IMG/VR virus record: IMGVR_UViG_3300021185_000238
Coordinates: 1-58,830 of that record
Direction: 5' to 3' (one strand)
Source of the DNA: a virus
DNA length: 58,830 bases
Under the pieces are notes generated by a model. It was not told the origin of the DNA. It saw only the letters and a program-made list of their open reading frames with translations, and did not search any database. Positions within the stretch are counted from its first letter, which is position 1. Every line of letters starts with the position of its first letter. Below, piece by piece: positions 13,752 through 17,331 of this stretch. The position numbers and the translations under genes were made by a program.

Positions 13752-14441
13752 TTACATATACCCTATGCGGGGGGTAAACCTAGCCGAGGTCTTCTCTCTA
13801 TCTTCTCCTGCGGCCAAGGCAAACTGCTCGTCGTACACAGACTTTAACAAGGGCACTCTTTCTGTCATCTCGGGTAGCTTCATGGCTATGTAGTATGCCA
13901 GTCCTGCTACTAGGCACGGGAAGAATCTAAAGTTCATATCCGCTGTTTCTACGCCACTACCGGCATCTTGTATGCGGCGCATACGCCAGTAGTACAATAC
14001 GTAGTCATTAGTATCTGGTAGAGGCCATACATTTACTTTGGGGTTATCCCGCAAACGCTCAATATATAGTTGTATGGGCCTGCCTTGTGTTAACTTGTTA
14101 GGGATAGAAGCGTACGTGCTCACACTAATCCGGCTTATGGATAGGTCAGTTTGTGTCGCTGCATTCCCGCTACCCGTGCGTATCTGGTGCTCCAACAAAT
14201 CAATGGTGTCTGCGGGCAAGTCATAGGGAGTGGTCTTACCTTTAACTAAGTTAATAGTGCCTTCGTCGATAGTCCACATGTTGATGCCGCGATTTTGCCA
14301 CTCAATAGTAAGCAAGTTCATGGAACGTCTAGCGGTTTTTAAGTCGTACCCAGAACGCATCTCACGGCCCGCTCGCTCAAACGCTTCTTCCGCGATCTCA
14401 GTGAACTCCATGTTAAACGCTGTAGAGTTTGATGTAGCCAT
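13752..14441 (-). CDS. P22 gp4-like head completion / tail accessory factor
   Basis: A 229-aa protein. Residues 10-60 (FTEIAEEAFERAGREM, then a helix with R-S-M-N-L-L-x-x-E-W and RGINMWTIDEG) and the later YDLPADTIDLLE and YYIAMKLPEM segments fit the helical adaptor family that includes the P22 tail accessory factor gp4, which closes the portal after packaging. The start overlaps the stop of the 60-aa gene at base 14441. Context with portal, adaptor and gp10-like genes supports a podovirus-type neck. Confidence 0.65.
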   Translation of the reverse strand: MATSNSTAFNMEFTEIAEEAFERAGREMRSGYDLKTARRSMNLLTIEWQNRGINMWTIDEGTINLVKGKTTPYDLPADTIDLLEHQIRTGSGNAATQTDLSISRISVSTYASIPNKLTQGRPIQLYIERLRDNPKVNVWPLPDTNDYVLYYWRMRRIQDAGSGVETADMNFRFFPCLVAGLAYYIAMKLPEMTERVPLLKSVYDEQFALAAGEDREKTSARFTPRIGYM

Positions 14442-14623
14442 TATTTACCCCACCCTGCCTTAGCTTTGACCTTAGCTTTATTAGATAGGTCGCCATAGTG
14501 ATACAGTTTCTTAGACGTATTTGACATAGCTTTGCCAGTCATAAGAGTCCCGTCAGGGTGCTTGTGCATACCACCCTTATGTTCTTTACCGTCTTTGAAG
14601 TAGTGCTTAACACCCATACCCAT
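14441..14623 (-). CDS. Small basic protein
   Basis: A 60-aa Lys/Gly/His-rich protein (MGMGVKHYFKDGKEHKGG start). No domain is recognised. It begins on the last base of the preceding stop (TAATG-like overlap at 14623). It is one of five consecutive small basic genes between capsid and neck genes, so it may bind packaged DNA or be a minor virion component; this is inference from charge and position. Confidence 0.6.
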   Translation of the reverse strand: MGMGVKHYFKDGKEHKGGMHKHPDGTLMTGKAMSNTSKKLYHYGDLSNKAKVKAKAGWGK

Positions 14624-14925
14624 TATTTCTTTCTCCGCTTAGTAGCCGATACTCGTCTAGGCTTACCTGCTGGTTGTCCTAGCCTTTTCTTTTCCGCTAC
14701 CTTCTTTGCTTTCTCGGCGCTAGACATCTCACCAGAAGTCTTGGGGGTTTTTTCAGATACACGCTTAGAAGGGCGGCAGTAAGGTGTTCCCCTACCGTCT
14801 CCCTTCTTTCTACCACAAGCCTTTCCAGTCTTAACGTCTTTCCAATCTTCTTTGAACCAACGCTTTAGGGCCGCACCCTTTTCGGTTTTGCGAACTCCTC
14901 CACCAGACTTGTAATACGTACGCAT
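14623..14925 (-). CDS. Basic protein with MR-x-YYKSGG start (DUF5872-like)
   Basis: A 100-aa highly basic protein. It opens MRTYYKSGGGVRKTEKGAAL, then KRWFKEDWKDVKTGKACGRK and GTPYCRPSKRVSEKTP. The W-F-K-E-x-W-x-D and C-G-R ... Y-C-R-P-S-K-R blocks match a small conserved family in viruses that I recall as DUF5872. The C-terminus is a Lys/Arg tail. It shares its N-terminal signature with two neighbours. DNA-binding is probable from charge; the function is not known. Confidence 0.65.
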   Translation of the reverse strand: MRTYYKSGGGVRKTEKGAALKRWFKEDWKDVKTGKACGRKKGDGRGTPYCRPSKRVSEKTPKTSGEMSSAEKAKKVAEKKRLGQPAGKPRRVSATKRRKK

Positions 14926-15104
14926 TACTTACCAGCCTTTTTCTTCCGGCACTTAGCAATGGCTCCCGACGCGTAAGCAGACGGGAACACCTTATATTGC
15001 TTCTTGACCTTTTTATAGCACGCGTCTTTTACAGTGCCCCCTTCTTTCATCTTTCGGGGTTTACTGCCGCAACCGCAATCGCTCTTCTTGTAGTAGCGTC
15101 GCAT
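14925..15104 (-). CDS. Small Cys-containing basic protein
   Basis: A 59-aa protein that starts MRRYYKKSDCGCGSKPRK and ends with the conserved block YKVFPSAYASGAIAKCRKKK, which I recognise as a recurring motif of small hypothetical viral proteins. Starts and stops overlap both neighbours as TAATG (15104 and 14925). Cys at residues 10, 12, 29 and 52 might bind zinc. Part of the small basic gene cluster; function unknown. Confidence 0.65.
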   Translation of the reverse strand: MRRYYKKSDCGCGSKPRKMKEGGTVKDACYKKVKKQYKVFPSAYASGAIAKCRKKKAGK

Positions 15105-15454
15105 TACGCACCTTTCATCTTGACCATCTTGCAGACTCTACCACCACGAGCCATACCGCAGCCACGAACCTTACCACCAGCTTTCATCTTGCCTTTACCA
15201 TCCGCAGCGTAAAAAGGGACTTTCTTACCACCTTTTTCTACCATGTCTAGCTTGCCACCAGCTTTATACTTCTTAGCCATACCACCAGCCATCATCTTCT
15301 TGGCAGACTTATTTTTGGCTTCCATAGCTTCCTTAGCTTTTTTCTCTTCGGGGCTAAGGGTTAAGTTCTGCATCATAGCTTCCCGCTGACGGGCGGCCTT
15401 TTGTGCGGGGGTCATCTTGTCAAACTCTTCTTTAGAAGGTACTTTTGGTTCCAT
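15104..15454 (-). CDS. Lys/Gly/Met-rich basic protein
   Basis: A 116-aa protein. The N-terminal third is a charged helix (SKEEFDKMTPAQKAARQREAMM). The rest is low complexity with repeated GG motifs (MMAGGMAKKYKAGGKLDM, KAGGKVRGCGMARGGRV). No enzyme motif. The GG-hydrophobic motifs recur in other virion proteins of this genome. Its stop overlaps the next ATG as TAATG. Confidence 0.6.
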   Translation of the reverse strand: MEPKVPSKEEFDKMTPAQKAARQREAMMQNLTLSPEEKKAKEAMEAKNKSAKKMMAGGMAKKYKAGGKLDMVEKGGKKVPFYAADGKGKMKAGGKVRGCGMARGGRVCKMVKMKGA

Positions 15455-15459
15455 CTATA

Positions 15460-15753
15460 TCACCATTTAGATTTATTTGCCCAATACGCCGCAGACATTT
15501 TGCCTTTGGCTATATTTTTACCGTGACGGGCTTTAAAAGATTTACGTTTAGCTTTCATCTTAGCGGACTCGCCCTTCTTAGGTTTACCTGCTGTAGATGC
15601 GCCTTGCTCACCGTAACGTATTATTTTCTCTTTGCCGTTCTCACATGCCTTAACTATGTGAGATTTCTTAGCGTGCGAGGGAGTCCGACGTGGTTTATTG
15701 CACGCCATAGCCTTTTTATCGACTTTACCGCCGGACTTGTAATAGCTACGCAT
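15460..15753 (-). CDS. Basic protein with MR-x-YYKSGG start
   Basis: A 97-aa basic protein opening MRSYYKSGGKVDKKAM, then KKSHIVKACENGKEKIIRYG and a C-terminal block RKSFKARHGKNIAKGKMSAA followed by YWANKSKW. These two blocks are highly conserved in small proteins of marine phages, but I know of no assigned function. Net charge suggests nucleic-acid binding. First of the basic cluster in transcription order. Confidence 0.65.
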   Translation of the reverse strand: MRSYYKSGGKVDKKAMACNKPRRTPSHAKKSHIVKACENGKEKIIRYGEQGASTAGKPKKGESAKMKAKRKSFKARHGKNIAKGKMSAAYWANKSKW

Positions 15754-16425: not shown

Positions 16426-17331
16426 TTAAGCGCCGGGCGATCCGTAGATACCCAGTGGATCGGAAACACCAAACGAGTAGCGTTCACGAGCCTTGTAACG
16501 GCTGTTGCCAGTATCGAAATCAGCGTCCATAGAGGTAGCCATTGGGCTACGTACAAAGTGCTTCAGACCATTTGGCACGTCAGTCATCATAAACCAAGCG
16601 TCAGTGTCAGTCAGGTAGTGATTGACTGCATATCCGCCGGGTACTGCGCCGTTAGTCATAATGGCGTTGATGTCGTTATCAGCAGTTCCTACACGACCTT
16701 CAGTCTCAAGCAAACGAGTTGCAACAAACTGCAAGGCAGGTGGGATAACTAGCTTCTTAGGCTTGGCCGCGATCAAGAGACCACGCTCATCAGTGTAGCC
16801 TGCTACCTGAATGATAGCTGCTTCCAGAGAAGTTTCGTTAAGGTCAGCCGCAACAGTAGGACGGTTGGAGTTAGTTCCACCGCTAACCAGAGGGTGATCG
16901 GTAGCACAAAGTACTTTTCCGTCGCCGTAGGTAGTGCCAGCAAAAGCGTTGTTCAGAATGTCTGCGCCTTTAACTTGCTTGGTGTATGCCATAGCGCGAG
17001 CCAGTGCTTTGGTGTAACGAGATGACAGAGAGTCATACAAGTTATCTTCAATCGCTTCTTCAGTGATTGAGAAACCCATTGCAACAGTTTCGTGCGTGTA
17101 GCGTGCGCTCCATGCTTCCTGCGCGTTATCGTACTCGATTGCAGAACCTTCAGCTTTAGTTGGGGCAGAGCCAAAACCAGACAGCTTAGTTTCTTCTTCA
17201 AAAGAACGGTCAGAGGTTTCAGTCTCGAAAATCTCTTTGTGCTCTTCGCCATATTTTGCATACTCCAGACCAAATAGTGCGTTAAGTCCGGGTAGCAACT
17301 CTTTGAGTAATTGACTTCTTGAAATAGCCAT
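16426..17331 (-). CDS. Major capsid protein (gpT-like)
   Basis: A 301-aa protein. The N-terminus (SRSQLLKELLPGLNALFGLEY) is characteristic of a marine phage capsid family related to Mu gpT-type HK97-fold proteins. The central region (HETVAMGFSITEEAIEDNLYDS) and the P-domain-like RPTVAADLNETSLEAA, with KPKKLVIPPAL and the ending SFGVSDPLGIYGSPGA, fit this family. It follows the scaffold and a 204-aa auxiliary gene and is followed by a strong terminator. There is no long N-terminal delta domain, consistent with a separate scaffold. Confidence 0.85.
   Translation of the reverse strand: MAISRSQLLKELLPGLNALFGLEYAKYGEEHKEIFETETSDRSFEEETKLSGFGSAPTKAEGSAIEYDNAQEAWSARYTHETVAMGFSITEEAIEDNLYDSLSSRYTKALARAMAYTKQVKGADILNNAFAGTTYGDGKVLCATDHPLVSGGTNSNRPTVAADLNETSLEAAIIQVAGYTDERGLLIAAKPKKLVIPPALQFVATRLLETEGRVGTADNDINAIMTNGAVPGGYAVNHYLTDTDAWFMMTDVPNGLKHFVRSPMATSMDADFDTGNSRYKARERYSFGVSDPLGIYGSPGA

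What the first reader, a model, noticed from the sequence alone, without database searches (positions are those of the whole stretch)
14441..15753. Five tiny basic genes in a row, three sharing the start MR-x-YYK
The products at 14623, 14925 and 15460 start MRTYYKSGG, MRRYYKKSD and MRSYYKSGG, then diverge fully. A common N-terminal tag on different basic bodies suggests a shared targeting signal, for example for packing into the head. All lie between the capsid and neck genes.
Basis: partly seen in the sequence, partly recalled or inferred. Interest (0 to 1): 0.62.

Follow-up and report, generated by a model that had tools for sequence, protein, structure and literature searches.

The report
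Shared leader on phage head-region proteins
In a marine phage, several unrelated small, strongly basic proteins made next to the capsid gene begin with the same short leader peptide, and relatives put that leader on at least eight kinds of recurrent viral building-block proteins, which looks like a shared docking signal for the virus head.

Summary
Five small genes (pI 10-10.8) lie between the capsid and SU10-type adaptor genes; three start MRxYYK. Across 328 loci held, 89 distinct proteins start MRxYYK (0.02 expected); all 89 belong to a few small basic families, and no capsid, adaptor or neighbouring-gene protein carries the leader. A DNA scan that ignores the bodies found RxYYKxGG at an ORF start in 61 of 67 distinct places. 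The leader sits on at least eight body types. Bodies are recurrent viral modules: DUF5872 split over two genes, phrog_7595 (Tlr6F-like), and in relatives DUF6321. A second leader (RGMG) is also shared, and leader types match within a genome. Head links: phrog_7595 is also the C-terminal domain of the predicted capsid-maturation protease of phage ICP1 (hhalign E 4e-7). A T4-like cyanophage protein beside the terminase fuses three of the modules, and an S-CREM2 protein ending in the DUF6321-type module was detected in virions. No maturation protease was found in this phage's head-gene block, so T4-style leader cleavage is unlikely. Most likely these are head-associated basic proteins whose leader is an exchangeable, uncleaved docking arm. 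The leader's function remains inference.

The parts
15460..15753 (-). Basic protein, 97 aa: leader MRSYYKSGG + phrog_7595 domain (beta hairpin plus two C-terminal helices in the model)
   Evidence: phrog_7595 E 7.9e-37; AF2 pLDDT 79.8, pTM 0.68; same domain at C-terminus of ICP1 Gp125
15727..15753 (-). Leader MRSYYKSGG
   Evidence: low-confidence arm (mean pLDDT 61 for residues 1-10) in the model
15104..15454 (-). Basic K/G-rich protein, 116 aa, without the leader; contains internal KKYKAGG and RGCGMARGG
   Evidence: no Pfam or PHROG match; relatives in the same position
14925..15104 (-). Basic protein, 59 aa: leader MRRYYKKSD + YKVFPSAYASGA module = first part of DUF5872
   Evidence: DUF5872 profile positions 11-40, E 0.002 for the genome, below cut-off; 20 of 27 relatives match
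15078..15104 (-). Leader MRRYYKKSD
   Evidence: conserved in relatives
14623..14925 (-). Basic protein, 100 aa: leader MRTYYKSGG + second part of DUF5872
   Evidence: DUF5872 profile positions 48-111, E 2.7e-14, 54 bits over cut-off 27.5
14899..14925 (-). Leader MRTYYKSGG
   Evidence: unstructured (mean pLDDT 45 for residues 1-10) in a poor model
14441..14623 (-). Basic protein, 60 aa, without the leader (HYFKDGKEHKG..HKHPDG)
   Evidence: relatives in Roseobacter phages CRP-902 and CRP-207
16426..17331 (-). Major capsid protein, upstream flank of the island
   Evidence: Phage_capsid_4 E 7e-15, phrog_371 E 4.5e-23
13752..14441 (-). SU10-type adaptor (neck) protein, downstream flank
   Evidence: PF24175 E 8.7e-9

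Best explanation
The five genes are a late-gene island of small head-associated basic proteins. Three of them are built as one exchangeable N-terminal leader (MRxYYK[SAK]GG, a flexible arm of about 9 residues) joined to one of a set of recurrent viral basic modules: the two parts of DUF5872 in separate genes, and the phrog_7595 domain. Proposed working: the bodies are held inside the procapsid and contact DNA or the inner shell, and the leader is an uncleaved docking peptide for the scaffold or inner capsid surface that loads several different bodies by one contact. Shown here: the leader, its confinement to these basic modules and to N-termini, its exchange with other leaders, the module identities, the conserved capsid-adaptor position, and a phrog_7595 domain on a predicted capsid-maturation protease. 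Inferred: presence in the virion, DNA contact and docking by the leader.
For: 89/89 MRxYYK proteins are small basic modules, 0.02 expected. A body-independent DNA scan gives 61 of 67 distinct RxYYKxGG places at an ORF start (58 ATG, 3 GTG) and at least eight body types. Island order MCP-[phrog_7595 or DUF6321 body]-14925 type-14623 type-SU10 adaptor is seen in most of 155 relatives. Two leader types match within genomes: for the 14925 and DUF6321 bodies YY/YY 27, RG/RG 9, YY/RG 0, RG/YY 0; the excess holds when shuffling inside groups linked at 75% adaptor identity. phrog_7595 is the C-terminal domain of ICP1 Gp125 (XkdF protease domain E 7e-10; phrog_7595 E 6e-11; hhalign E 4e-7), a predicted capsid-maturation protease (PMC9040626, PMC7567579). 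P-SCSP2 has four modules in a row between scaffold and MCP. S-CAM8 and S-SM2 fuse the modules in one protein between the terminase genes or next to terL. S-CREM2 gp137, ending in the DUF6321-type module, was detected in virions (4 unique peptides, PMC10665884).
Against: No virion proteomics was found for a phage with the stand-alone leader-bearing forms. S-CREM2 gp137 coverage was 4.1% and the matching peptides are not stated, so the module itself may be absent. 122 of 141 relatives of the 14623 product lack the leader. The ICP1 copy of the phrog_7595 domain is not basic, so DNA condensation cannot be its only role. In some phages the modules lie away from the capsid gene (CRP-207 near lysis genes and terminase; HTVC106P near a peptidase).
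Confidence: 0.5

Rival explanations
1. The leader is part of the nucleic-acid-binding surface: an aromatic-basic N-terminal arm (R, YY, K, GG hinge) that adds DNA or RNA contact to any basic body, without any targeting partner.
For: Composition R-x-Y-Y-K-G-G, disordered in the models; only strongly basic bodies carry it; related KYxxGG motifs occur inside the 15104 product and its relatives.
Against: Almost strictly N-terminal: only 6 of 67 RxYYKxGG places are not at an ORF start. A binding motif could sit anywhere. Two alternative leaders match within genomes, which charge alone does not predict.
Confidence: 0.22
2. The leader is an evolutionary hitch-hiker: a short N-terminal cassette spread between neighbouring genes by recombination or gene conversion, with little function of its own.
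For: Leader exchange is frequent: 21 changes of leader class on the adaptor tree. Leaders match within genomes. Relatives work without it.
Against: Synonymous sites of leaders are hardly more alike within a genome (0.54) than between genomes (0.50), so there is no sign of recent copying. Codons vary while R-x-Y-Y-K stays fixed. Non-basic neighbours never acquire it.
Confidence: 0.15
3. The proteins are late, non-virion factors (for example packaging accessory or host nucleic-acid-binding proteins) that merely sit in the head operon.
For: Relatives often lie beside terminase genes (S-CAM8, S-SM2, CRP-207). No direct virion data for stand-alone forms.
Against: Detection of the S-CREM2 module-bearing protein in virions (PMC10665884) and fusion of the phrog_7595 domain to a predicted capsid-maturation protease.
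Confidence: 0.13

Closest known systems
T4 internal proteins with the capsid targeting sequence (CTS)
   Same: One short N-terminal peptide on several otherwise different small proteins of the phage head. The CTS encapsidates them into the scaffolding core and can carry foreign proteins (PMC3012670).
   Different: The leader here has no acidic residue, and no head-maturation protease was found among the head genes scanned, so T4-style cleavage is not expected. The bodies here are conserved modules shared by unrelated viruses.
Tlr6F / DUF5754 (PF19058) and phrog_7595
   Same: The 15460 product is a clear phrog_7595 member. 17 of 45 relatives match DUF5754 weakly, best E 0.0016. The model matches a giant-virus protein (Tunisvirus) in BFVD. 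Tlr6F is reported in polinton-like viruses, virophages, giant viruses and some phages, function unknown (PMC4642659).
   Different: The window protein itself does not reach DUF5754 even at E 10, and it carries the phage-specific leader.
DUF5872 (PF19197), reported in an algal giant virus (PMC12085832)
   Same: 14925 and 14623 products match consecutive parts of the one family profile, in order.
   Different: The domain is split into two overlapping genes, each with its own leader.
T4-like cyanophage gp114 / T4-GC119 family (phrog_727)
   Same: Carries the 14925-type, DUF5872-like and DUF6321 modules in one polypeptide.
   Different: Fused, without the MRxYYK leader; in S-SM2 interrupted by a DUF192 domain.

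Membership tests
T4 CTS-bearing internal proteins | One conserved N-terminal peptide on unrelated head-region proteins | tested here: met
T4 CTS-bearing internal proteins | Leader ends in a prohead-protease site ((I/L)xE, from memory) and a maturation protease is encoded | tested here: not met
   Leader MRxYYK[SAK]GG has no E; no protease family match among the head genes of the window. A diverged protease cannot be excluded.
T4 CTS-bearing internal proteins | Peptide directs cargo into the head | not testable with these tools
   Needs virion mass spectrometry or a fusion assay
DUF5872 (PF19197) | Score over the curated cut-off, 14623 product | tested here: met
   54.2 bits against 27.5
DUF5872 (PF19197) | Score over the curated cut-off, 14925 product | tested here: inconclusive
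   14.4-15.5 bits, below 27.5, but profile positions 11-40 directly precede those matched by the neighbour
phrog_7595 | Full-length profile match, 15460 product | tested here: met
   E 7.9e-37, profile 11-96 of 96
Tlr6F / DUF5754 (PF19058) | Score over the curated cut-off, 15460 product | tested here: not met
   No match at E 10; relatives only 0.0016 at best
DUF6321 (PF19846) | Score over cut-off for the alternative occupant of the 15460 slot in relatives | tested here: met
   17 of 17 members matched, L096 protein 68 bits against 28.5; not present in the window island

The most novel reading that the evidence does not exclude
MRxYYK[SAK]GG, and the alternative RGMG leader, are uncleaved capsid-loading signals of a large group of marine phages. 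One receptor on the scaffold or shell reads the leader, so unrelated basic modules (DUF5872 parts, phrog_7595/Tlr6F-like, DUF6321 and others) become interchangeable internal head proteins, and the leader type co-varies with the receptor.
Probability: 0.33. Interest if true: 0.75.

Novelty: new variant of a known kind. Interest (0 to 1): 0.55.

Why it matters
Tlr6F-like, DUF5872 and DUF6321 proteins are widespread in viruses, yet no function was found for them in the papers searched. This locus ties them together as interchangeable parts of one capsid-adjacent system with a common leader, and links the Tlr6F-like domain to a predicted capsid-maturation protease. That gives a concrete, testable head-related function for an orphan viral protein set, and perhaps a short tag for loading proteins into phage heads.

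Tried and rejected
Three genes as paralogues: rejected, profile comparisons show no body similarity. 15460-type and DUF6321 bodies as one family: only 20 columns, hhalign probability 6%; left open although the two never co-occur in one island. DNA-level repeat or recombination word: codons vary freely. Solved-structure relatives: none by sequence and none by fold for the 15460 product. The 14623 product gave a poor model (pLDDT 62.6, pTM 0.32) that was not searched. Prochlorococcus siphophage P-SS2 proteome: no module in the first 40 kb, so no help. Phylogenetically independent pairs for leader matching: too few to reach significance. No paper mentioning DUF6321 is held.

Full report
WHAT IS THERE. 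The window is a 58,830-base IMG/VR virus record. Its nearest cultured relatives by terminase are Pelagibacter phages HTVC027P/HTVC023P, phage DSL-LC04 and a Planktothrix/Synechococcus group, at 41-48% identity. On the minus strand the head block reads terminase, portal, GroES-like protein, scaffold-like protein, two unknowns, MCP, two small acidic ORFs, the five basic genes, then SU10-type adaptor genes. All five basic genes were found exactly as described, with pI 10.0-10.8 among acidic neighbours. Most starts overlap the previous stop as TAATG, which suggests translational coupling.

IS THE LEADER REAL. In the loci held at that point, 6,697 distinct ATG ORFs of at least 40 aa were listed; 89 start MRxYYK, 0.024 were expected, and all 89 are in the small basic families. 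By family the looser leader is on 19 (14623 type), 49 (14925 type), 18 (15460 type), 29 (DUF6321 type), 2 and 1 proteins, and on none of 104 MCPs, 132 adaptors, 32 relatives of 14441 or 45 of 15104. Of 67 distinct places, 58 are directly preceded by ATG and 3 by GTG, each opening a small basic protein. Nine of the 58 ATG-started proteins are not matched by my module models; they are a YPSAYAN variant and a SLKNWTKQKW type. One GTG case carries a further body. Tyr, Arg and Lys codons vary, so the peptide is conserved rather than the DNA. Synonymous identity of leaders is 0.54 within and 0.50 between genomes, so there is no sign of recent copying.

EXCHANGE OF LEADERS AND BODIES. In 155 related islands the order MCP ... 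15460 type or DUF6321 type ... 15104 type ... 14925 type ... 14623 type ... 14441 type ... SU10 adaptor recurs. The 15460-type and DUF6321-type bodies were never seen together, so they look like alternative occupants of one slot. Outside the leader-bearing group the same bodies begin MAVRK, MAKQ or MMKCRGMG. The RGMG leader is itself shared by three bodies. For the 14925/DUF6321 pair the table is YY/YY 27, RG/RG 9, YY/RG 0, RG/YY 0, the remainder involving 'other' starts. Shuffling within adaptor-identity groups keeps the excess up to 75% identity and loses it at 80% for two of three gene pairs. The groups are coarse, so shared ancestry is not fully excluded. The leader is therefore exchangeable, not an inherited part of each body.

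WHAT THE BODIES ARE. 14623 is DUF5872 (positions 48-111, 54 bits) and 14925 covers positions 11-40 of the same profile: one known viral domain split over two genes. 15460 is phrog_7595 (E 7.9e-37) and resembles Tlr6F/DUF5754 only weakly through relatives. Its AF2 model (pLDDT 79.8, pTM 0.68) has no PDB match. In the viral library its confident matches, by Foldseek probability, include a Tunisvirus protein, ICP1 ORF125, and proteins named XkdF and ChaB.

LINK TO THE HEAD. ICP1 Gp125 has an XkdF protease domain at residues 36-160 and a phrog_7595 domain at 184-261 (E 6e-11; hhalign E 4e-7). Gp125 is described as the predicted capsid-maturation protease (PMC9040626, PMC7567579). P-SCSP2, a T7-like cyanophage, has 14925-like, HHS-type, 14623-type and DUF6321 genes between scaffold and MCP. 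MED4-184 has two modules just before its MCP. S-CAM8 gp114 and S-SM2 protein 109 fuse several modules between the terminase genes or next to the large terminase gene. S-CREM2 gp137, in the corresponding place and ending in the DUF6321-type module, was detected in virions with 4 unique peptides, 4.1% coverage (PMC10665884). This supports a head role for the bodies but does not prove it for the leader-bearing genes.

MECHANISM. The pattern works like the T4 internal proteins, where a conserved capsid targeting sequence loads a diverse protein set into the scaffold core (PMC3012670). It is not filed as that family: the leader lacks a protease site and no maturation protease was found among the head genes scanned. 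I favour an uncleaved docking arm on head-internal basic proteins (0.5), ahead of a nucleic-acid-binding arm (0.22), a neutral mobile cassette (0.15) and non-virion late proteins (0.13). Virion location, DNA contact and docking are inferred.

Noticed in passing
L328:14709-15545 (-) (Vibrio phage ICP1 ORF125): The predicted capsid-maturation protease carries a C-terminal phrog_7595 domain (184-261) that looks acidic rather than basic, so the domain's core role may be protein contact rather than DNA charge neutralisation.
   Followed up: partly
L241:3263-4630 and L242:1729-3855: T4-like cyanophage proteins fuse DUF5872-like, YKVWPSAYASGA and DUF6321 modules, with short (I/V/L)xE stretches between some of them that resemble T4 prohead-protease sites; possibly a head polyprotein.
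   Followed up: no
L242:1304-1732 and L245:502-1215: Neighbouring cyanophage proteins start MKTLKQFLKE (S-SM2 108) and MQTFSMFFSE (S-CREM2 gp136, detected in virions), reminiscent of the T4 capsid targeting sequence as I recall it.
   Followed up: no
island loci such as L227-L231: A second leader containing RGMG is shared by 14925-type, DUF6321-type and RLFNKIK-type proteins and replaces MRxYYK in other genomes.
   Followed up: partly
window:14441-14623 and relatives: HYFKDGKEHKG..HKHPDG family in two Roseobacter phages and many environmental contigs; no Pfam or PHROG match, never with the leader.
   Followed up: partly
window:8729-10006 (-): 425-aa protein made almost wholly of Thr/Ser-rich TTSYTTTFNT-like repeats downstream of the long tail-fibre-like ORF.
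   Followed up: no
window:45470-53116 (-): 2,548-aa ORF with only a weak EF-hand-like Pfam match; function not identified.
   Followed up: no
window:19437-19856 (-): GroES-like (Cpn10) gene inside the head gene block, between portal and scaffold-like genes; also annotated in HTVC023P and CRP-902.
   Followed up: no
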